This document shows, in pieces, positions 25,362 through 33,439 of a stretch of DNA of 44,101 nucleotides (positions are counted from its first letter, which is position 1; every line of letters begins with the position of its first letter). The stretch lies in contig JAJZCZ010000007.1 of assembly GCA_021828805.1 (NCBI GenBank), positions 1 to 44,101 of the forward strand, read 5' to 3'. The stretch comes from Nitrospirota bacterium. GTDB lineage: Bacteria; Nitrospirota; Leptospirillia; Leptospirillales; Leptospirillaceae. The notes under the pieces are model-generated. The model was not told the origin of the DNA. It did no database searches and was given only the letters and a program-made list of their open reading frames with translations. The position numbers and the translations under genes are program-made.

Positions 25362-26633
25362 TTACTGCCCCGAAAGGAATCTCCCGACTGTTATAGGAGC
25401 TTCGACATGGGCGCTGACCCGATTGCGAAAGTGACGGACAACCACGTTTCTGGCATGCCACTCGCTGCAGTCCCGCAGAAGAAGCGCCCCCATGTTTTTG
25501 GCCGGATCGTAGAAAAAGGGATCCGACACCCGGCAGGCGGCCTTGACCTCGGAGAGGGAGTGGGGGCCGGTCTCCCAAAAGGGAAGCAGGACCAGATTGC
25601 GCCACCCGGCAGGGTCGATAATTTTTGCGATCTCTTCGACACCTGCCACCGAAAATCCTCGCTCGGTCCAGAAGCGCGAAAAACGGAAATGCGACGAGGT
25701 GAGCGACTGGGTATGAGAGACCAGGGCCGTGGAAATCTCCCGGATAAATCGGTTCATTCTCACGAGGCCTCCTCCGGCCAGGGCACTGACCGGCACCGGA
25801 ATTTCGCCCAGGAGGTGGACTCCCCCGACAAAGACAGAAAACCGGATATGCACCTCGTTACCGATCCGGACCCCCCGCTCCCTGAGAACAGGCGTGCCGG
25901 TCGACGTGGCGCCGGACTTTAACCCGGGACGCTTCCATGTCAGCCCGGACTGCGTCACCCCCTCGGAGATTTCCCCTTCAATGACATCCCGGTGCCATTT
26001 CCTGTTTCGAACAGCATAATAGAGTTCGTAAATCTGCATCCGGTGTTCCGGAAGGGGAAGTCCTGTCCTTCTCGAAAACCCTGAGTTTCCACGAAACTCT
26101 TCAGGAAACTGCTCGAGAAGCTTTGTAACGACGAACTCGGCCTCCATATCCTCAACCCACCTGTCGAGGGCGCCTCGCAAGGCGGTCGCAGGGCTCTCCG
26201 TCAGCCTTGCCGACTGCTCTCGGACCCGTGCGGGATCTTCCCCGGGAATCACCACCAGAAGTCGACCCCAGGAAAATCCCAGAAAGACTATTCCCAAAAC
26301 TGACGTATCGAACAAAAAACCAGAACGAAGAAGGAAGATATCCGAAGTCACGGGCTTTTCTTCTTTCAGATGGGCCCAGAATGCCTTGAGGTGCATCTTC
26401 TCTGCAGGGGCGGCGGCTTCTTCCATGAAGCTACGGAATCTGTCAATACTTGACCCGAGAACCCCCTCCGGCCATATCATACGAAGAGGCGGCGCCGAGA
26501 GGATGATCTCGTAGCTATGGTAAAAGAGGGCCATGTTGGACCCGAGGACCTTGGCCAGGTCCTCGAGCTCATCTCCCGGAGGAAAGGCCGATCCAAAAAG
26601 GGCCCCTTTGAGGGGCCTGTGGCTCAGAATCAA
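25362..26633 (-). CDS. Protein of unknown function upstream of tusA-like gene
   Basis: 423 residues with no motif I recognise. It is soluble-looking with one hydrophobic stretch (VLGIVFLGFSWGRLLVVIPG, about 110-130) and many aromatic and Arg residues. Central DRWVEDMEAEFVVTKLLEQF looks helical. A later part has beta-rich EVHIRFSVFVGGVHLLGEIP. The start is TTG 26633, chosen because AAGGA lies seven bases upstream; an ATG at 26534 would shorten it by 33 residues. Its start is only 15 bases from the start of the divergent acyltransferase. An intrinsic-terminator-like hairpin falls within its first 13 codons. It probably shares a transcript with the TusA-like gene. Confidence 0.75.
   Translation of the reverse strand: MILSHRPLKGALFGSAFPPGDELEDLAKVLGSNMALFYHSYEIILSAPPLRMIWPEGVLGSSIDRFRSFMEEAAAPAEKMHLKAFWAHLKEEKPVTSDIFLLRSGFLFDTSVLGIVFLGFSWGRLLVVIPGEDPARVREQSARLTESPATALRGALDRWVEDMEAEFVVTKLLEQFPEEFRGNSGFSRRTGLPLPEHRMQIYELYYAVRNRKWHRDVIEGEISEGVTQSGLTWKRPGLKSGATSTGTPVLRERGVRIGNEVHIRFSVFVGGVHLLGEIPVPVSALAGGGLVRMNRFIREISTALVSHTQSLTSSHFRFSRFWTERGFSVAGVEEIAKIIDPAGWRNLVLLPFWETGPHSLSEVKAACRVSDPFFYDPAKNMGALLLRDCSEWHARNVVVRHFRNRVSAHVEAPITVGRFLSGQ
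26595..26617 (-). terminator. Terminator-like hairpin at the start of the unknown gene
   Basis: GGCCCCT (26601-26607) pairs with AGGGGCC (26611-26617) around a TTG loop. Read on the minus strand it is followed by CTTTTT, the form of an intrinsic terminator. It overlaps codons 6-13 of the 423-aa gene if that gene starts at 26633, and would lie in its leader if it starts at 26534, so it could attenuate that gene or block antisense transcription from the acyltransferase. Confidence 0.55.
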
Positions 26634-26648
26634 AGAGATATCCTTGGA

Positions 26649-27356
26649 ATGAGAAAAATCCCTTCAAAAAAGATCTCCCGCCGGGAGGATCTTTGGTTAT
26701 TCTTCCTTTCCCTTTTCGTCTACGTCCTGATCCGTCTTTATATTGCGACTCTCCGAAAAACCTACGTCAATGCGGAAAGTTACCGGACGCGATACGCAAA
26801 AGAAGAGGGAATGATCCTTGCCTTCTGGCACAACCAGATCCTGACGCTCCCCATTTTTTATTTTGGAAGGCCCGAAGGACTCTCAACACTGATCTCTCTG
26901 TCAAAAGATGGAGAGCTCACGTCACGCATTGTCAGACGCTGGGGTATCAGAACCATCCGGGGATCTTCCCACCGCGGAGGCATGGACGCCTTCAAGGAGT
27001 TGCTCCGGCGGGCCAGAAATCCCCGTCACCACATTGCCCTGACGCCCGATGGCCCCAAGGGGCCTCCTTTTGTGGTCAAAGACGGCCTTCTGATTCTGGC
27101 CAAGCGATCCGGACGACCCATCACCCCTCTCGCGGTGGCCTACCAGCGATACACACCGCTCAAAAGCTGGGACGGTTTTCTGATACCCTACCCTTTTACA
27201 AAAGCTTACTTTGTTTCCGGGGATCCTGTCCAGATAACGGAAGAGCTTGATCCTGAAGGGCTCGACAGAGCCAGGGAACGCTTGACAGCGGCCATCCACG
27301 CAACCAATGCCCGGGCCATGTCCATGCGAAGGCCAAAGGATGGGCTTTCCTCTTGA
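26649..27356 (+). CDS. DUF374-type lysophospholipid acyltransferase family protein (paralogue 1)
   Basis: 235 residues. A hydrophobic N-terminal helix (LWLFFLSLFVYVLIRLYI) anchors it to the inner membrane. The family blocks are AFWHNQ at 58-63, SKDGEL at 85-90, RGSSHRGG at 104-111 and TPDGPKGP at 132-139, diagnostic of DUF374 proteins, which act as acyltransferases on lipids or lipid A-type substrates. Substrate is unknown. ATG 26649 is preceded by weak AAAGAGAT; the frame is open further upstream but that part overlaps the divergent gene. A close paralogue begins at 30507 in this window. Confidence 0.88.
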   Translation: MRKIPSKKISRREDLWLFFLSLFVYVLIRLYIATLRKTYVNAESYRTRYAKEEGMILAFWHNQILTLPIFYFGRPEGLSTLISLSKDGELTSRIVRRWGIRTIRGSSHRGGMDAFKELLRRARNPRHHIALTPDGPKGPPFVVKDGLLILAKRSGRPITPLAVAYQRYTPLKSWDGFLIPYPFTKAYFVSGDPVQITEELDPEGLDRARERLTAAIHATNARAMSMRRPKDGLSS

Positions 27357-27370
27357 TTACCCCCTCAGCC

Positions 27371-27400
27371 TTGCCGGAAAATAAACATTAAGAATATTCC
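27371..27400 (+). promoter_or_regulatory. Weak candidate promoter for the Slp-like lipoprotein
   Basis: TTGCCG (27371-27376), 18-base spacer, TATTCC (27395-27400) in the AT-rich gap before 27469. The -10 match is poor. Confidence 0.25.
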
Positions 27401-27468
27401 CATACCCTTCCTATCGGAAAGAGGATGGAAAACCAACACTACCACTGACCCACCGCCAAGGAGATTCC

Positions 27469-28059
27469 GTGTCGCAACCGATCTGGACAAACATCACCCG
27501 ATTGATCACGGGAGGGCTGCTCGGCCTTGGACTTGCCGCCTGCGCCTATCAGCTTCCTCCCCAACCCACGGCCTTTATTACGCGCCAGGAGCCGGACAGA
27601 CTCTCCGAGGTCCTCGCTCATAAGCCTCTTCCTAACGGAAGAGTGGCCGTTCTGGGCGGACAGATTCTCCGTCGTTACGACGGACCCACGGGACGCTACT
27701 TTCTTATCAGGGATCTTCCACTGGATGAGGATGCCTATCCTCACCCGCCGGCCGGCAAGATCCACATCGATCCGTCCCGGGAGTTCATTCTTTTTACCCC
27801 AGCGATGCACATCCTGGGGGAACACCGGGTGAAAAAGAAGCGGTCACAGAGCGCTTTTGTCGTCTTCGGGCAGGAGGAAAACCGGACGATCACCATGGGA
27901 CCCGGCCACATTGTCACCGCTGTGGGCGAAGTCCACGGGATGGCCCCCTTTCCCCAGAGCAACCACAAAAGACGTTACCTGCTCCTTGTCAGCCAGTACG
28001 TCATGCTCTGGTCGAAGGCGCGGCCGGAAGACTACCCTCTCGTCACGAAAATGCCGTAA
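27469..28059 (+). CDS. Slp-like outer-membrane lipoprotein
   Basis: 196 residues with a lipoprotein signal: hydrophobic GGLLGLGL then lipobox LAAC with C25 as the lipidated residue. The body shows the Slp-family style of short beta blocks, such as VAVLGGQILRR and GPGHIVTAVGEVHGM, followed by YLLLVSQYVMLW. E. coli Slp is a starvation/stationary-phase outer-membrane lipoprotein; here the family call is moderately sure and the function is not. The start is GTG 27469 with AAGGAG at a 5-base spacing. It is followed by a strong hairpin terminator and then a tRNA. Confidence 0.75.
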   Translation: MSQPIWTNITRLITGGLLGLGLAACAYQLPPQPTAFITRQEPDRLSEVLAHKPLPNGRVAVLGGQILRRYDGPTGRYFLIRDLPLDEDAYPHPPAGKIHIDPSREFILFTPAMHILGEHRVKKKRSQSAFVVFGQEENRTITMGPGHIVTAVGEVHGMAPFPQSNHKRRYLLLVSQYVMLWSKARPEDYPLVTKMP

Positions 28060-28067
28060 TCAAAAAA

Positions 28068-28098
28068 GTCCATGGCAGACCCCTGCCATGGACCCTTT
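28068..28098 (+). terminator. Hairpin terminator after the lipoprotein gene
   Basis: Perfect 11-bp stem GTCCATGGCAG/CTGCCATGGAC (28068-28078 and 28083-28093) with loop ACCC, followed by CCTTT. The T-tract is short, and six A's precede the stem, so it would be a better terminator on the minus strand, yet it lies 8 bases after the plus-strand stop. Confidence 0.6.
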
Positions 28099-28099
28099 C

Positions 28100-28128
28100 T
28101 TGCCACACCCAGAAAGCCTCCGTATAAT
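28100..28128 (+). promoter_or_regulatory. Promoter of tRNA-Leu
   Basis: -35 TTGCCA (28100-28105), 17-base spacer, perfect -10 TATAAT (28123-28128). The predicted transcript start is about 20 bases before the tRNA. Confidence 0.85.
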
Positions 28129-28155
28129 CGTAACGTCACATCTCCCACGACCCAG

Positions 28156-28242
28156 GCTCGGGTGGCGGAACAGGCAGACGCAGCGGACTCAAAATCCGCC
28201 GGTGGTGACACCATAGGAGTTCGATTCTCCTCCCGAGCACCA
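28156..28242 (+). tRNA. tRNA-Leu (CAA anticodon)
   Basis: Acceptor arms GCTCGGG (28156-28162) and CCCGAGC (28232-28238), discriminator A and an encoded CCA end. The anticodon stem GCGGA/TCCGC encloses CTCAAAA, giving anticodon CAA at 28190-28192. The long variable arm (class II) is typical of Leu, and the T arm contains GAGTTCGATTCTC. All structural parts fit. Confidence 0.95.
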
Positions 28243-28327
28243 ATATCAAAGCCGTTCTAAGCAAAAATTCCTTGGTAACTTTCCATTACTTTCTCACTCT
28301 CCTGTCACCCGGACAGCCACATAATAC

Positions 28328-28349
28328 CCTTAACTTTTACCTGTTAAGG
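28328..28349 (+). promoter_or_regulatory. Hairpin covering the Shine-Dalgarno site of a tiny ORF
   Basis: CCTTAAC (28328-28334) pairs with GTTAAGG (28343-28349) around an 8-base loop. The right arm holds part of the AAGGAGG Shine-Dalgarno sequence (28346-28352), so the stem could block translation of the 30-codon ORF at 28360. Confidence 0.5.
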
Positions 28350-28359
28350 AGGGTCAAAA

Positions 28360-28452
28360 ATGGCGACTTTTCGCAAGGACAATTTTTCTCCTGTAGAGGC
28401 AGTGTTGATGACGAGCAGGTCTCAAGCCTTGACGTACAGGACAGAATCATGA
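28360..28452 (+). CDS. Possible 30-residue leader peptide or small protein
   Basis: ATG 28360 has a near-perfect AAGGAGG seven bases upstream, the best ribosome-binding site in this stretch. The product begins MATFRKDNFSPVEAVLMTSR and ends after 30 residues; it is not recognisable. Its TGA overlaps the next ORF's ATG (ATGA). Real translation is plausible because of the ribosome site; it lies between the tRNA and the ornithine-lipid genes. It may be a leader peptide, or the two ORFs may be one gene split by a frameshift. Confidence 0.4.
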   Translation: MATFRKDNFSPVEAVLMTSRSQALTYRTES

Positions 28453-28631
28453 CGTTAAAGGCATCCCGTCCGGGGACCGATGCGCCGAGTCTCAGATCAG
28501 CGCAGGCGAACGGACTAAAAAAGTCCGACGAGACGGAGCGGAAGGCGCAAGAGGAAAAAGAGAATGAATGCCTCTTGGAAGACATTCGCCTTTGCTTACA
28601 TGTAAAAATTTACAGCACATTGATGACTTGA
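28449..28631 (+). CDS. Possible 60-residue small charged protein
   Basis: An open frame of 60 residues starting at ATG 28449, overlapping the previous tiny ORF as ATGA. It is rich in Lys, Glu and Ser (LKKSDETERKAQEEKENE) and contains two Cys. No family is recognised and no independent Shine-Dalgarno site is seen, so expression would rely on coupling. The rest of the gap to olsB at 28772 holds a promoter-like region and a palindrome but no gene I can see. Confidence 0.35.
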   Translation: MTLKASRPGTDAPSLRSAQANGLKKSDETERKAQEEKENECLLEDIRLCLHVKIYSTLMT

Positions 28632-28664
28632 CCGGGATGCCTCTCCCTCTCACGTTACCGTTTC

Positions 28665-28693
28665 TTGACGCTCTCGCCTCAAATCCGTAACAA
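28665..28693 (+). promoter_or_regulatory. Weak candidate promoter for olsB-olsA
   Basis: -35 TTGACG (five of six consensus bases, 28665-28670), 17-base spacer, TAACAA (28688-28693), which matches the -10 consensus at three bases. A 12-bp palindrome follows 15 bases further on. Confidence 0.35.
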
Positions 28694-28707
28694 AATGTAG
28701 ACCTTAC

Positions 28708-28719
28708 CGTCATATGACG
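28708..28719 (+). promoter_or_regulatory. 12-bp perfect palindrome, candidate operator upstream of olsB
   Basis: CGTCATATGACG is fully self-complementary and lies 53 bases before the olsB start, just downstream of the promoter-like sequence. Its size and symmetry suit a dimeric regulator. Confidence 0.4.
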
Positions 28720-28771
28720 CGACTATTCTCGGGAGCGATGACAGCCATCCAACCCGACCCGGGAGGTCGCC

Positions 28772-29563
28772 ATGTCTACATCCATGTCTCCGGTTCTTGC
28801 TCCCCTTCGCTCTTCCCCCCTCAAAGTCTCGTGGGCCCGCAACGAAAAAGATCTCCTTCGGGCGCAGCGTCTCCGGGCTCTGGCCTTTGGGTTTTCCCCT
28901 CCCCAAACCCCAGAACACCTGATTATCCCGGAGCAGGACCGGTTTGATTCCTTTGCGCGCCATCTGATCGTCGTCGATACCGACCGGGACCTCTGCGTCG
29001 GAACCTACAGGATCCTTGATTACCGGGGGGCCCAAAAAGCCGGGGGGTTCTATACAGGAACCGAGTTCGACATCAGTGCCCTGTCCCCCCTCCTCGAACA
29101 CACCGCGGAGCTCGGACGCTCGGCCGTCCACCCGGACTACCGGAGCGGAGGGGTCATTTCCCTCCTCTGGTCGGCCCTGGCCAGGGTTCTCATGAAGGAG
29201 GAGATCCAGTACCTCATGGGATGCGCCAGCTGCGACCTGACCGACCCCTCTCTCGACATCGACCGGATCTATACCTATCTTCGGAGCCAGGCCTGGGGAG
29301 AGGACTCCCAGACAGTCATCCCCTACCGCCACTACCCCTGCCTCTACCGGCCCGGCCATGATCCCCGCCCCCCCGTTCTCCCGCCCCTTCTCAAAGGCTA
29401 TGTGCGGCTGGGAGCGCAGGTTCTGGGAGAGCCCTCCCACGACCCGGTCTTCCAGACGGCCGATTTTCCTGTCTGGCTTTCGGTCAGCGAGACTTCCGGG
29501 CGTTACGCACGGCACTTCTTCCGGTCAGGACGGAAGACGGTCCGCAACCGGAGCGCTTCATGA
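28772..29563 (+). CDS. olsB: L-ornithine N-alpha-acyltransferase (OlsB-type, hemolysin-like GNAT)
   Basis: 263 residues. OlsB attaches a 3-hydroxyacyl chain from acyl-ACP to ornithine, the first step of ornithine-lipid synthesis. The PF13444-type acyltransferase blocks are visible: VGTYRILDYRGAQKAGGFYT, TEFDISAL, ELGRSAVHPDYRSGG, and LMGCASCDLTDPS. ATG 28772 has GGGAGG five bases upstream. Its stop overlaps the next gene (ATGA), and the pair OlsB-OlsA is the standard arrangement. The N-terminal ~25 residues are extra relative to the core. Substrate is inferred from family and neighbour. Confidence 0.87.
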   Translation: MSTSMSPVLAPLRSSPLKVSWARNEKDLLRAQRLRALAFGFSPPQTPEHLIIPEQDRFDSFARHLIVVDTDRDLCVGTYRILDYRGAQKAGGFYTGTEFDISALSPLLEHTAELGRSAVHPDYRSGGVISLLWSALARVLMKEEIQYLMGCASCDLTDPSLDIDRIYTYLRSQAWGEDSQTVIPYRHYPCLYRPGHDPRPPVLPPLLKGYVRLGAQVLGEPSHDPVFQTADFPVWLSVSETSGRYARHFFRSGRKTVRNRSAS

Positions 29564-30372
29564 AGGCCTCCGCACTGCCTTCTCCGGCCCCCCGGCTTCT
29601 TCCCAAAGCCCTTCGAAGCCTCCGGGCCCTCCATGTCGCCACCCATATTGCCGGATGCTTTCTGCTTCCGGCAACGAACCGGAATACGTCCCCGGAAGCC
29701 CGCGACCCTCTCTCGATCTGGTGCCAGCGACTTCTCTCGAAGTTTGGCGTGGAGGTGACAATCGATGGCTCCCTCCCGGGTCCGGGCCCCTTCCTGATCG
29801 TCTCCAACCATATCTCCTGGATGGACATTCTCCTTATCCGGCATCTCACGGCGGCCCAGTTTATCGCCAAGGAAGAAATCTCCCTCTGGCCCGTCATCGG
29901 ATCCGGCGCCAGAAGGGCCGGAACGCTTTTCATCTCAAGAGAAAAACTCTCTTCCTTCCACTCCATCCTTGAGCAGGTATGCCAGCGCTTCGACGAAAAC
30001 AAGTCCGTCGCCCTCTTTCCCGAGGGGACGACGACAACGGGAGAGTCGCTTCTTCCCTTCCGGAGCGGCCTCTTCCAGAGCTCCCTCCGGACGGGGATCC
30101 CGGTCCTTCCCGTGGCCATCCGCTATGAAACCCTGACAGGAAATCACAACCTTGCCGTCTCCTATACCGGAGGGGAAAGCTTCGGAAAATCCTTCTGGAG
30201 AACACTCGGGGAGCCCCGCATCATGGCCCGCCTCTCCCTCTGCCGCCCGATCTTCCCGGAAAAAAAGTCGAGAAAGGAACTGGCAACGGAAGCCCGGCAC
30301 TCTATCCTGTCAGCCCTTTCCGGACAAGACTCTCAGCCCGGAAAAAATCTCTCTTTCCCGCTCCCGTCGTGA
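29560..30372 (+). CDS. olsA: 1-acyl-sn-glycerol-3-phosphate acyltransferase-type (OlsA/PlsC)
   Basis: 270 residues. PlsC-family motifs: NHISWMD (HX4D, H84 and D89), AGTLFISR near 120-127 and FPEGT at 153-157, followed by LPVAIRY. Next to olsB it would add the second acyl chain to lyso-ornithine lipid, although a phosphatidic-acid role is also possible. It starts inside the olsB stop (ATGA). A stable hairpin lies immediately after its stop. Confidence 0.88.
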   Translation: MKASALPSPAPRLLPKALRSLRALHVATHIAGCFLLPATNRNTSPEARDPLSIWCQRLLSKFGVEVTIDGSLPGPGPFLIVSNHISWMDILLIRHLTAAQFIAKEEISLWPVIGSGARRAGTLFISREKLSSFHSILEQVCQRFDENKSVALFPEGTTTTGESLLPFRSGLFQSSLRTGIPVLPVAIRYETLTGNHNLAVSYTGGESFGKSFWRTLGEPRIMARLSLCRPIFPEKKSRKELATEARHSILSALSGQDSQPGKNLSFPLPS

Positions 30373-30375
30373 AAA

Positions 30376-30396
30376 AACGGGGAGTTTCTCCCCGTT
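30376..30396. terminator. Stem-loop directly after olsA
   Basis: AACGGGGAG (30376-30384) and CTCCCCGTT (30388-30396) form a perfect 9-bp stem with a TTT loop, four bases past the olsA stop. Six A's precede it, so a T-tract exists only on the minus strand; on the plus strand it is a 3'-end hairpin without a U-run. Confidence 0.5.
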
Positions 30397-30422
30397 CCCC
30401 AGTCCTCACTCAACAATCGGGC

Positions 30423-30451
30423 TTTCCATTTTTTCCTCTTTCCTCTATGAT
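30423..30451 (+). promoter_or_regulatory. Candidate promoter for the second DUF374 acyltransferase
   Basis: TTTCCA (30423-30428), 17-base spacer, -10 TATGAT (30446-30451). It predicts a start near 30458, before the inverted repeat and the ATG at 30507. Confidence 0.5.
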
Positions 30452-30473
30452 TCATAGAAGAGTGATTGATTTT

Positions 30474-30499
30474 TTGTTTAAACTGAAACATTTAAACAA
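30474..30499 (+). promoter_or_regulatory. Inverted repeat between promoter and start, candidate operator
   Basis: TTGTTTAAA (30474-30482) and TTTAAACAA (30491-30499) are perfect complements around an 8-base gap CTGAAACA. It is AT-rich in a GC-rich window and ends seven bases before the ATG at 30507, a typical place for a repressor site or a translation-blocking hairpin. Confidence 0.5.
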
Positions 30500-30506
30500 G
30501 AGCGAG

Positions 30507-31250
30507 ATGACCACTCTCCCCCTCCAGCTCCGGATCGCCTCCTACCCGGTCTCCCTTCTTCTCCGGCTCTTCCGCCTGACCAACCGGTGTCAGGTCATCG
30601 GCTTCAGGGAGTATCGTCAGCGCCTGAACAGGGGAGAGCATGTTCTCATCGCCTTCTGGCACAACCAGGGTCTCTTCATGCCCTTCGTCTGGTTTGGAAA
30701 ACCCGGACGGATCAAGCTGATCGTCTCCCGCTCGAAAGATGGAGACCTCATTGCCTCCCTCCTTCTCTGGTTCGGGATCGGCAATATCCGGGGATCCTCA
30801 AGCCGGGGAAGCACGGCGGCTCTCAAGGAGCTCCTTCGCCTCGACCGGAAGAATACAGACTCGATCGTCTTCACTCCGGATGGCCCCAAAGGCCCTATCT
30901 ACAAGGTCAAGGACGGGATCGGCTACCTTGCCATTTCCTCGAAGAAGCCGCTTTACCTCCAGAGTGTCTGCTGCACAAAATCCAAAGAACTTCACTCCTG
31001 GGACCGCTTCCGCATCCCTCTTCCCTTCGGGTGCGCCACATGGGTCTGCTCTCCGGGACTCTATCTTTCAGGCCATCCCGGGCTGACCCTTGACGAGGCC
31101 GGGAGGATCATTGAAGACGGTCTTAACTTTATCAACCGGATCACCGAGGCTCTTTCGGCCGGACAGATTACAGAAAAAGAGGCCCGGGCGCTTTTGGACC
31201 CCGAGTCCCTTCCCTGGCGCCCCTACAGCATGGCCCCCGCCGCGTCATGA
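30507..31250 (+). CDS. DUF374-type lysophospholipid acyltransferase family protein (paralogue 2)
   Basis: 247 residues. Shares all family blocks with the gene at 26649: AFWHNQ (49-54), SKDGDL (76-81), RGSSSRGS (95-102) and TPDGPKGP (123-130), plus VKDGIGYLA. The N-terminus (TTLPLQLRIASYPVSLLLRL) is a hydrophobic membrane helix. Open frames extend up to 30369 and 30447, but the -10 box (TATGAT) and inverted repeat upstream, and the match to the family N-terminus, favour ATG 30507, which has a weak AAGAG site. The C-terminal ~50 residues (FINRITEALSAGQITEKEA) have no counterpart in paralogue 1. Substrate is unknown. Confidence 0.82.
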   Translation: MTTLPLQLRIASYPVSLLLRLFRLTNRCQVIGFREYRQRLNRGEHVLIAFWHNQGLFMPFVWFGKPGRIKLIVSRSKDGDLIASLLLWFGIGNIRGSSSRGSTAALKELLRLDRKNTDSIVFTPDGPKGPIYKVKDGIGYLAISSKKPLYLQSVCCTKSKELHSWDRFRIPLPFGCATWVCSPGLYLSGHPGLTLDEAGRIIEDGLNFINRITEALSAGQITEKEARALLDPESLPWRPYSMAPAAS

Positions 31251-31355
31251 GCAAAAAGGGTGTCCTCGCTTCTTTTCTTTGTAAATTTTTGCCCCCTGTT
31301 CTTTCACCACAACTTGTTACAAAAAATTTCTGATGAATTTCCCGTAATTCAGGAG

Positions 31356-31361
31356 TATAAT
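31356..31361 (+). promoter_or_regulatory. -10 box upstream of the desaturase gene
   Basis: Perfect TATAAT in an AT-rich stretch. The -35 region 17 bases upstream (ATGAAT) is poor, so this promoter may need an activator. The 218-base gap 31251-31468 otherwise holds only a leader hairpin and no gene I can see. Confidence 0.45.
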
Positions 31362-31409
31362 GAAAGGATCCCTGATTTTTTAGCAGGAACGATTCGGAAA
31401 AGAGTGCCG

Positions 31410-31446
31410 TGTTCCGGACAGCCCTCCAAAAAGAGAGGGCGGAACA
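31410..31446 (+). promoter_or_regulatory. Bulged leader hairpin upstream of the desaturase gene
   Basis: TGTTCCG (31410-31416) pairs with CGGAACA (31440-31446), and CCCTC (31422-31426) with GAGGG (31435-31439), leaving a one-sided 5-base bulge GACAG and an 8-base loop. It lies between the -10 box and the GTG start. Confidence 0.45.
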
Positions 31447-31468
31447 TTCATGAAAGGATCAGGACAGA

Positions 31469-32323
31469 GTGCAGCTTCCCCTTGAACGACTCAGACATCA
31501 TATTGACGGATATAACAGACTTGCCGACGACTCCAACTGGAACCGGTTCAAGTCCCTTCACTGGAACGAGCTTAACCCTGCCCTTCTCACCGAAGGACAG
31601 AAAAATGCGGTTATCTTCGTCACCTACGTGGAAGACCATCTCCCCGGATATTTTTCGGAATACCAGTCCCTCTTTCCCATCGAGACTGACTCCATGGCCC
31701 TCTCCCTCCACAACCGGGAGCTCTTCCACTTCACCATCCGCGGGGGTCTTGAAGAGGATCGCCATGCGCAGGCTCTGGCACTTTACCAGTACCACTCCGG
31801 TATTGAGCCCGACCGCGACCGTCTCGAGGAAAAACTGATCGTGGAAAACAGAAAACCCTTCAGCATCGGATTTTCCGAGCCTGTGCAGGTCTTCACCTAC
31901 ACACTCCTTCAGGAGAAAGCCACCCAGCTCTACTACCAGAGCCTCTCCCGGGTGGTGAAGGAACCGGTCCTGAACCGTCTGCTCATCTACCTCACCAAGG
32001 ATGAATCACGCCACTTCGGCTTCTTTAGCGAGATGGTCGACTCCTTCGTCGAGTACTACGGCGAAAAAGTTCTCTCCCTGATTGAGGAGGTAACACTCAA
32101 CTACAAGATGCCCCTCCACAACACCATGGAAGACTATCGCCGCCGGGCAATCCTGATGGCCCGTGAGGCCCCCGGATACGACCGCATGCTCCCGCAGAAG
32201 GTTCTTATGCGCCAGCTCAAGCGGCTGGGAGAGAGGCTGCCGGATCTTTCCGACGTTATTGACGCCTCTGTCGCCCGCATGATGGATTCCCTGCGTATCA
32301 CCACCATCGAAGGCGTCGCCTGA
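31469..32323 (+). CDS. Acyl-ACP desaturase (plant-type soluble diiron fatty acid desaturase)
   Basis: 284 residues, ferritin-like four-helix diiron enzyme that introduces a double bond in acyl-ACP using oxygen and ferredoxin. The diiron ligands are visible: E55 (TYVEDHLP), E96 and H99 (EEDRHA), E149 (LQEKAT), E179 and H182 (DESRH). It starts with GTG at 31469; AAGGA lies 10 bases upstream. Mycobacterial DesA1/2 and plant stearoyl-ACP desaturases share this architecture. No FabA or FabB-type anaerobic route is visible in the window, so oxygen-dependent desaturation may be how unsaturated lipids are made; that is inference. A weak hairpin separates it from the convergent dut. Confidence 0.88.
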   Translation: MQLPLERLRHHIDGYNRLADDSNWNRFKSLHWNELNPALLTEGQKNAVIFVTYVEDHLPGYFSEYQSLFPIETDSMALSLHNRELFHFTIRGGLEEDRHAQALALYQYHSGIEPDRDRLEEKLIVENRKPFSIGFSEPVQVFTYTLLQEKATQLYYQSLSRVVKEPVLNRLLIYLTKDESRHFGFFSEMVDSFVEYYGEKVLSLIEEVTLNYKMPLHNTMEDYRRRAILMAREAPGYDRMLPQKVLMRQLKRLGERLPDLSDVIDASVARMMDSLRITTIEGVA

Positions 32324-32446: not shown

Positions 32447-32924
32447 AGGTTCCGGTATGGCCGAAGCCGCCCTCCCCCCGCGCCGTCACTTCCCCGAAGC
32501 TCTCCGCCACAACAAGCGCCACCGATGACAGAACCGGAAGGAACATCAACTGGGCGATCCGTTCTCCCGGCTCAACGGTGTATGTCTGCTCCCCGTCGTT
32601 GGCCAGAATGACCCCGATCTCCCCATGGTAATCGGAGTCGATGACCCCGATTCCCTGGGCCACCCGGATTCCGTGCTTGAGCGAAAGTCCCGACCGGGAG
32701 GCCACGATCCCGACAATCCCGGGATCCCGGATATCGAGGGCAATGCCTGTACCGACAAGCTGTCTCTTCCCGGGGGCGATCTTAACCGGCTCCGGGATGG
32801 CGGCGCGCAGGTCGAGCCCTGCCGATCCGGGGGTCGCCCGGGAGGGAAGACGGAAGCCGGGAGACTCCCTCAGGACACGGACGGCAATCTCCCGTGTCAC
32901 TTCCTCGTTATGCTCTCCCCTCAT
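32442..32924 (-). CDS. dut: Deoxyuridine 5'-triphosphate nucleotidohydrolase
   Basis: 160 residues, the trimeric dUTPase that keeps uracil out of DNA and makes dUMP for thymidylate synthesis. The five family motifs are present: [44 protein letters not shown] and GEGGFGHTG at the C-terminus. The start ATG overlaps the stop of the upstream lipoprotein gene (ATGA). The N-terminal ~12 residues ([12 protein letters not shown]) are extra and could mean the true start is downstream, but no better ribosome site is seen. Confidence 0.96.
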
Positions 32925-33439
32925 GGTCCCTTCTTCCCGGCATCACTTCCTCCGCCCTCCTTCGCCGTCTCTCCCGTCAATGCCGGAGCGACAGGAATAT
33001 CCAGAGAGGCAAAGCGCCCGTACACATCCCGAAGGGAGAGATGGATTGATCCTTGCGTCTCACTTGTCCGGAAGAAGACCCACCCCGGGGTCGTCGAGTT
33101 GGCGGGGAAGACGGTTGGAAGACCCAGTCTGACGAGACGTCCGAGCTTCGACCGGCTTTCCTCCACAAGCCGGCGGTCCATCAGCGCCTCCGGGACCGCC
33201 CCCTTTGAGGAGGCATACCGGTATCCCAAAAGGCGGACCTCGGCCCCCGGATTGATGACGGAGAGGTTGATCGCCAGCACCGGAAACGTCGTCCGGTGGA
33301 GGATATCCCCTCCGGCGTCGACCTGGAGGATCCGGGCGGAGACGATCGACGCCTTCACCGGCGAGGGATTTTTGTGGGGGGTGCAGCCTCCGAGGACAAA
33401 CGCCGCCAGAAGAAGAGCGGCCCCGTTTCTTCCCGTCAT
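32921..33439 (-). CDS. Predicted lipoprotein of unknown function
   Basis: 172 residues with a lipoprotein signal peptide: [14 protein letters not shown], lipobox LGGC with C19. The mature part has a beta-rich pattern (for example [20 protein letters not shown] and [19 protein letters not shown]), consistent with a periplasmic immunoglobulin-like fold, but I do not recognise the family. The C-terminal ~20 residues are Gly/Lys-rich. Its ATG overlaps the argB stop and its own stop overlaps dut, so it is wedged in an operon with housekeeping genes. Confidence 0.75.

What the first reader, a model, noticed from the sequence alone, without database searches (positions are those of the whole stretch)
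26649..32323. A six-kilobase envelope-lipid module: four acyltransferases, a desaturase and a Slp-like lipoprotein on one strand
Seen in sequence: two DUF374-type acyltransferase paralogues (26649, 30507), a PlsC/OlsA-type enzyme, an OlsB-type GNAT, a diiron acyl-ACP desaturase and a lipobox protein, all plus-strand, between blocks of minus-strand housekeeping genes. Established: OlsB/OlsA make ornithine lipids, often under phosphate stress or acid; acyl-ACP desaturases fix membrane fluidity. Inference: this is a membrane-remodelling unit, with the DUF374 pair acting on a lipid not handled by OlsA. The mix of paralogues around olsBA is not one I recognise as a described cluster.
Basis: partly seen in the sequence, partly recalled or inferred. 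Interest (0 to 1): 0.7.

Follow-up and report, generated by a model that had tools for sequence, protein, structure and literature searches.

The report
Lipid genes split by tRNA integration site
The six lipid-related genes are real, but they look like several separate units that happen to be neighbours (ornithine-lipid enzymes, two probable lipid A acyltransferases, a desaturase and a lipoprotein), cut in two by a tRNA gene where mobile DNA appears to insert in related bacteria.

Summary
The genes are present as described, but "one module" fails. In relatives this tRNA looks like an island integration site: five loci carry only a copy of its 3' part upstream of olsB, and integrase, restriction, toxin or transposase genes lie there in some. 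The right-hand block recurs in 9 of 12 named family loci but comes apart in other genera: DUF374-b orthologues of three other genera are not near olsB, and desaturases of this family occur in a genus without detected olsB. Conserved promoter-like elements precede olsB, DUF374-b and the desaturase; only olsB and olsA overlap. DUF374 has a known role: its characterised members are LpxJ lipid A secondary acyltransferases, and both window copies keep all six residues shown to be critical in LpxJ, in a genome with LpxC, LpxK and two LpxL-type genes. Best reading: OlsBA makes an amino lipid; the DUF374 pair are LpxJ-type enzymes; desaturase and lipoprotein are separate units. Known enzyme kinds in a genus-specific order. 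One lead deserves follow-up: DUF374 and LpxL copy numbers track each other across the family.

The parts
26649..27356 (+). DUF374-a, LpxJ-type acyltransferase (start could be 26517)
   Evidence: PF04028 82.1 bits; W60, H61, D87, D134, W174, D175 match the critical LpxJ residues
27469..28059 (+). Slp-like outer-membrane lipoprotein
   Evidence: PF03843 28.8 bits, cut-off 22.5; lipobox cysteine at residue 25
28068..28093 (+). terminator-like hairpin after slp
   Evidence: 11-pair stem, loop of 4, T-rich tail
28100..28128 (+). promoter-like site of the tRNA
   Evidence: TTGCCA-17-TATAAT, 11 of 12
28156..28242 (+). tRNA-Leu (CAA), apparent integration site in relatives
   Evidence: ARAGORN and Rfam; partial copies before olsB in five loci
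28772..29563 (+). OlsB-like GNAT N-acyltransferase
   Evidence: PF13444 87.1 bits; NCBIfam OlsB 110.3 bits, below the equivalog cut-off
29560..30372 (+). OlsA-like O-acyltransferase, overlapping olsB by ATGA
   Evidence: PF01553 91.3 bits; NCBIfam OlsA 104.1 bits, below the equivalog cut-off; overlap
30423..30451 (+). promoter-like site before DUF374-b
   Evidence: 9 of 12; TATGAT kept in 4 of 4 near relatives, less clear in distant ones
30507..31250 (+). DUF374-b, LpxJ-type acyltransferase
   Evidence: PF04028 78.1 bits (longer frame from 30369); W51, H52, D78, D125, W165, D166; LPLAT-fold model
31469..32323 (+). diiron acyl-ACP desaturase-like protein
   Evidence: PF03405 57.7 bits; DesA2 1za0 E 5.4e-6; E55, E96, H99, E149, E179, H182 invariant in 10 sequences
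25362..26633 (-). x25: unnamed 423-aa protein beside DUF374-a, kept beside a DUF374 gene in four genera
   Evidence: no Pfam or NCBIfam match; synteny

Best explanation
This is a neighbourhood of separate envelope-lipid units, not one module. Unit 1 (DUF374-a and slp) ends at a terminator-like hairpin before a tRNA-Leu that serves as an integration site in the genus. Unit 2 is olsB-olsA, overlapping genes that make an acyloxyacyl amino lipid, most likely ornithine lipid: OlsB N-acylates the amino acid with a 3-hydroxy fatty acid and OlsA esterifies the hydroxyl. Unit 3 is DUF374-b and unit 4 the diiron desaturase, each with its own upstream element. The two DUF374 proteins most likely work as LpxJ does, adding a secondary acyl chain to lipid A or its precursor, with partly overlapping roles. 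Shown: gene content, residues, linkage, partial tRNA copies, copy numbers. Inferred: substrates, transcription units, island ends, overlap of roles.
For: tRNA-Leu with promoter-like site and preceding hairpin. Partial tRNA copies upstream of olsB in 5 of 14 olsB loci examined, complete tRNA in 4, neither in 5; integrase after the tRNA in L183; HsdR, RelE, PIN, transposase and GmrSD genes in such intervals. DUF374-b orthologues in g2, g3, g5 not near olsB; desaturase family in all five genera while olsB was found in 0 of 3 g4 genomes. Upstream elements: GTCA 13 of 13 before olsB, GTATAAT 10 of 11 before the desaturase including L046 that lacks DUF374-b there, TATGAT 4 of 4 before DUF374-b. Six critical LpxJ residues present in both DUF374 proteins; LpxC, LpxK and two PF03279 genes in the own genome. 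DUF374-a reduced to fragments in G010 and G012 where DUF374-b is intact.
Against: The olsB-olsA-DUF374b-desaturase order is kept in 9 of 12 named family loci, more than indifference would predict. The promoter-like element of DUF374-b fades in distant relatives. Two LpxL-type genes already exist, so DUF374 is not needed to fill an obvious gap. The fold does not fix the acceptor. By the tree, the copies at the x25-slp position in g2, g4 and g5 group nearer DUF374-b than the window's DUF374-a, so position and ancestry disagree. No contig shows tRNA, island and repeat together.
Confidence: 0.68

Rival explanations
1. olsB-olsA-DUF374b-desaturase (without DUF374-a and slp) is a true co-regulated module in this genus: DUF374-b acts with OlsBA on an amino lipid, for example as an extra O-acyltransferase, and the desaturase supplies acyl chains.
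For: Order kept in 9 of 12 named family loci over 50-94% protein identity. DUF374-b belongs to the LPLAT fold, whose members use many acceptors. Two LpxL-type genes already exist.
Against: Characterised DUF374 members act on lipid A (PMC6148475, passages and section 9). Orthologues in three other genera are unlinked from olsB. G018 has olsBA-desaturase without DUF374-b between; its DUF374-b lies at the end of another contig. Separate conserved upstream elements. No DUF374 in the fetched flanks of 68 OlsA loci outside Nitrospirota.
Confidence: 0.22
2. The whole stretch 26649-32323 is one envelope-remodelling unit under common control.
For: Six same-strand genes with an envelope theme; both halves side by side in L039, L043 (without DUF374-a) and L046 as well.
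Against: tRNA-Leu, hairpin and promoter-like site inside; apparent island insertion between the halves in relatives; no PhoB-box-like repeat.
Confidence: 0.06
3. The DUF374 pair acts on another envelope lipid (lysophospholipid or glycolipid), not lipid A and not an amino lipid.
For: PatA, a phosphatidylinositol mannoside acyltransferase (recalled role), and PlsC are among the best structural matches.
Against: All six critical LpxJ residues are present with near-identical spacing; DUF374 and PF03279 copy numbers track each other.
Confidence: 0.1

Closest known systems
LpxJ (formerly DUF374) lipid A secondary acyltransferases
   Same: Family, and the residues W60, H61, D86, D132, W172, D173 of R. 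typhi LpxJ (PMC6148475, passages and section 9) have counterparts in both window proteins.
   Different: Two paralogues in a genome that also has two LpxL-type genes; one sits beside olsBA.
OlsB-OlsA ornithine lipid synthesis (Sinorhizobium type)
   Same: GNAT and PlsC-type enzymes in overlapping genes, matching NCBIfam OlsB and OlsA models.
   Different: Far below the equivalog cut-offs; the Nitrospirota are not in the list of OlsBA phyla in the passage seen of PMC12493201.
Acyl-ACP desaturases (DesA2, castor delta-9 type)
   Same: PF03405; ligand motifs E...EEDRH...E...DESRH invariant (ligand roles recalled).
   Different: Remote: best solved relative E 5.4e-6 over about 120 residues. A second copy, 64% identical, lies elsewhere in the genome.
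Leptospirillum slp5-8 acid-resistance candidates
   Same: Slp-like lipoprotein near a tRNA and mobile genes, as described in PMC7231039 (section 19 and passages).
   Different: Another genus; here partial tRNA-Leu copies point to the integration site itself.

Membership tests
LpxJ (DUF374) | PF04028 match above the cut-off | tested here: met
   82.1 and 78.1 bits, cut-off 26.8
LpxJ (DUF374) | Residues critical in R. typhi LpxJ (W, H, D, D, W, D) | tested here: met
   All six counterparts present by motif and spacing; no direct alignment to R. typhi LpxJ was made
LpxJ (DUF374) | Genome has a lipid A pathway | tested here: met
   LpxC, LpxK, two PF03279; the other lpx genes were not searched
LpxJ (DUF374) | Secondary acylation of lipid A | not testable with these tools
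   needs mass spectrometry or an enzyme assay
OlsB | PF13444 GNAT and OlsB model match | tested here: inconclusive
   PF13444 87.1 bits; OlsB models 110.3 and 107.6 bits, below the cut-offs of 320 and 350
OlsA | PlsC-type domain and OlsA model match, next to olsB | tested here: inconclusive
   PF01553 91.3 bits; OlsA models 104.1 and 99.8 bits, cut-off 300; overlaps olsB
OlsB/OlsA | Makes ornithine lipid rather than another amino lipid | not testable with these tools
   needs lipid analysis
Acyl-ACP desaturase | PF03405 fold and six diiron ligands | tested here: met
   57.7 bits; E55, E96, H99, E149, E179, H182 invariant in 10 sequences; assignment to ligands recalled; no NCBIfam desaturase model matched
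Slp lipoprotein | PF03843 match and lipobox | tested here: met
   28.8 bits against 22.5, no single stretch passing 0.001 alone; lipobox
tRNA integration site (in relatives) | Repeat of the tRNA 3' part and an integrase | tested here: inconclusive
   Partial copies in five loci and an integrase after the tRNA in L183, but never both ends on one contig; the window has no repeat
Single operon or regulon 26649-32323 | No terminator or foreign gene inside, and linkage kept in relatives | tested here: not met
   tRNA-Leu, hairpin and promoter-like site inside; linkage lost in other genera

The most novel reading that the evidence does not exclude
This family of acidophiles carries two lipid A late-acylation sets: LpxL and LpxJ paralogues that are gained and lost together, one LpxJ having moved beside ornithine-lipid genes in one genus, so that the cell could switch outer-leaflet packing between two lipid A acylation states and an amino lipid.
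Probability: 0.15. Interest if true: 0.55.

Novelty: new member of a known kind. Interest (0 to 1): 0.28.

Why it matters
It corrects a tempting gene-cluster call: same strand and a shared theme do not make a unit when a tRNA integration site lies inside. It gives two DUF374 genes of this Nitrospirota lineage a testable role (LpxJ) and points to an unexpected count: four probable lipid A late acyltransferases in one genome, with LpxL and LpxJ copy numbers that track each other in the family. I found little on lipid A or ornithine lipids of these lineages in the searchable library.

Tried and rejected
Rejected: that DUF374 replaces LpxL; the own genome has two PF03279 genes. Rejected: a recent tandem duplication of DUF374; 36% identity and separate supported groups in the tree. 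Rejected for lack of support: low-phosphate control through a PhoB-box-like repeat; 0 matches in the window, 0.76 expected by chance. Led nowhere: the x25 model (alignment of 3, pLDDT 36.2) is unusable; an OlsB profile against solved structures gave one hit at E 0.28. The DUF374-b model (pLDDT 73.9) only confirms the LPLAT fold.

Cautions. G007 carries olsB on a 3.0-kb contig at 468.7 bits, far above the g2 and g3 hits of 252.6 and 190.6, so it may be a binning error. G017 (7% contamination) seems to hold two species' versions; L044 and L045 come from that one bin. Copy numbers: equal in 14 of 21 genomes, 9 of 10 at 86% completeness or more, Spearman 0.83 in all 21, 0.82 after ranking out completeness. 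This ignores shared ancestry, and some PF03279 counts rest on contig-end fragments or weak partial matches (G010, G018, G001). In the tree, four short fragments (og_L184_265, og_L196_303, og_L197_348, og_L198_302; the last two extra frames or weak matches of loci already represented) should have been dropped; they fall among the outgroup rows. In one search, 26 of 28 loci given yielded a PF03279 row; G001:C10 and G010:C36 were lost. PF04028 searches used a profile; my own DUF374 profile found all 16 outgroup loci of the phylum but was not tested outside it.
Full report
What was checked. The window is the whole of contig C136 of a fragmented genome of 1.88 Mb, 78% complete. The nearest named records are "Nitrospirae bacterium" metagenome bins, among them UBA4572. 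I take the family to be Leptospirillaceae and genus g4 to be Leptospirillum itself; both are inference and recall (G004 is one contig of 2,559,538 bases). The order held 21 genomes in five genera: g1 (the window's, 14 genomes), g2 (1), g3 (2), g4 (3), g5 (1).

Observation. All six genes are present on the plus strand and match the families named. A terminator-like hairpin at 28068-28093 precedes it, and the best promoter match of the region scanned, 11 of 12, is at 28100-28128. Transcription of the DUF374-a/slp stretch probably stops before the tRNA, which starts its own transcript (inference).

The tRNA as integration site. The complete tRNA follows slp in the window, L039, L043, L046 and L183. 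In L041, L042, L044, L047 and L170 only nt 29-87, 30-87 or 29-86 of the tRNA were found, 86-100% identical, from 135 bp to 3.4 kb upstream of olsB. Of 14 distinct olsB-bearing sequences given to that search, 4 have the complete tRNA, 5 the partial copy and 5 neither; those five have from 1 bp to about 1.9 kb upstream of olsB. In L183 a PF00589 integrase frame begins about 125 bp after the tRNA. Genes in these intervals include HsdR, an HsdS-type domain and RelE (L041), PIN and a transposase piece (L039), and GmrSD and Gp49-like proteins (L042). The window has no such repeat. I did not see tRNA, island and repeat on one contig, so the island ends are inferred.

Gene order in relatives. Of the 12 named OlsA loci of the family (L039-L050), 9 keep olsB-olsA-DUF374b-desaturase. 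L046 has olsBA and the desaturase with no DUF374 between; its genome has a DUF374-b piece at the end of another contig (L169). L040 and L048 are contigs of 3.4 and 3.0 kb without DUF374-b after olsA; L040 has a 519-aa frame there that looks like an IS21-type transposase (recalled resemblance, not searched). Outside g1, g2 has olsBA at L171 and DUF374-b at L166; DUF374-b orthologues of g3 (L167) and g5 (L168) have no olsB in the stretch fetched. olsB was found in 16 of 21 genomes: 13 of 14 in g1, 1 of 1 in g2, 1 of 2 in g3, 0 of 3 in g4, 1 of 1 in g5. The desaturase family was found in 20 of 21, in all five genera; in g4 two genomes have two near-full copies each and the third only a 28-residue match. 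In G004 one copy lies beside a starch-synthase-like gene. The own genome has a second copy, 64% identical, on another contig. Across the phylum, olsB matched in 41 of 295 genomes and DUF374 in 164 of 295. Of 9 genomes outside the family with a clear olsB and a listed DUF374 position, 8 have them on different contigs and one 669 kb apart; the DUF374 list was cut, and contig ends leave room for a missed link. Among 68 OlsA loci outside Nitrospirota, 35 have olsB and 0 have DUF374 or this desaturase in the fetched flanks, short for many.

Transcription units. olsB and olsA overlap by ATGA. Before olsB a conserved block keeps GTCA in 13 of 13 sequences. Before DUF374-b, TATGAT is kept in 4 of 4 near relatives, with a partly kept TTTAAA inverted repeat, but this fades in more distant ones. 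Before the desaturase, GTATAAT is kept in 10 of 11, including L046 where DUF374-b is absent. These are conserved sequences, not measured promoters.

The DUF374 proteins. A library search for DUF374 with acyltransferase gave 5 papers, of which the Rickettsia LpxJ paper is the relevant one by title (PMC6148475, passages and section 9 seen). It reports that LpxJ, formerly DUF374, adds the 3' secondary acyl chain of lipid A, and that mutating W60, H61, D86, D132, W172 or D173 abolishes activity while H84 is dispensable. DUF374-a has W60, H61, D87, D134, W174, D175; DUF374-b has W51, H52, D78, D125, W165, D166. I matched these by motif and spacing, not by aligning the Rickettsia protein. The own genome has LpxC, LpxK with a PF03279 gene beside it, and a second PF03279 gene elsewhere. 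The model of DUF374-b matches GPAT, PatA, LpxM and PlsC folds. In G010 and G012 only fragments of DUF374-a remain between x25 and slp, while DUF374-b is intact, which suggests partly overlapping roles. Against a simple story, the tree puts the DUF374 copies at the x25-slp position of g2, g4 and g5 nearer to DUF374-b than to the DUF374-a of g1.

A side result. In the 21 genomes DUF374 and PF03279 copy numbers are equal in 14, and in 9 of the 10 at least 86% complete. G004 has one of each; of six g1 genomes that complete, four have two of each, G017 (contaminated) three of each and G012 one of each. The PF03279 tree shows two old groups. Shared ancestry, missing contigs and a few fragmentary matches weaken this, but it is the part most worth following.

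Verdict. The gene list holds; the single-module reading does not. The envelope theme is right, DUF374 has a published lipid A role, and the arrangement is a genus-specific order of known enzyme kinds. In the library no paper was found with Leptospirillum and olsB, with LpxJ and ornithine lipid, or with LpxJ, LpxL and Nitrospir-. One paper holds Leptospirillum and ornithine lipid: passages seen report ornithine lipids in acidic pit lakes where Leptospirillum is abundant, and none of those passages assigns them to it (PMC7565709). Two papers hold Leptospirillum, lipid A biosynthesis and acyltransferase; I saw only their listing.

Noticed in passing
window 25362-26633 (-): x25, a 423-aa protein without Pfam or NCBIfam match, lies head to head with DUF374-a and keeps its place beside a DUF374 gene in g1, g2, g4 and g5. 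Its family has matches in 19 of 21 genomes, three in the own genome.
   Followed up: partly
L041:1-9069, L042:3688-7093, L039:6256-9186: Apparent islands at tRNA-Leu(CAA) carry a type I restriction enzyme piece and RelE (L041), GmrSD and Gp49-like genes (L042), PIN and transposase genes (L039).
   Followed up: partly
window 28692-28705: A palindrome CGTCATATGACG lies in the conserved block before olsB, possibly an operator; the GTCA half is kept in 13 of 13 relatives, the other half is not.
   Followed up: partly
window 30474-30499: A 9-bp perfect inverted repeat (TTGTTTAAA / TTTAAACAA) just before DUF374-b, partly kept in near relatives.
   Followed up: partly
window 32921-33439 (-): A 172-aa protein with a lipobox-like start and no Pfam or NCBIfam match, between dut and argB (argB a recalled name), kept in relatives.
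   Followed up: no
L181:2063-3568, L182, L046 (between desaturase and dut): Part of the genus has an extra PQQ/BamB-like beta-propeller gene of about 500 aa after the desaturase; the window lacks it.
   Followed up: partly
G000:C108 and G000:C123: Two LpxL-type genes: one beside lpxK, one elsewhere; the tree shows two old groups with the lpxK-linked place held by different groups in different genera.
   Followed up: partly
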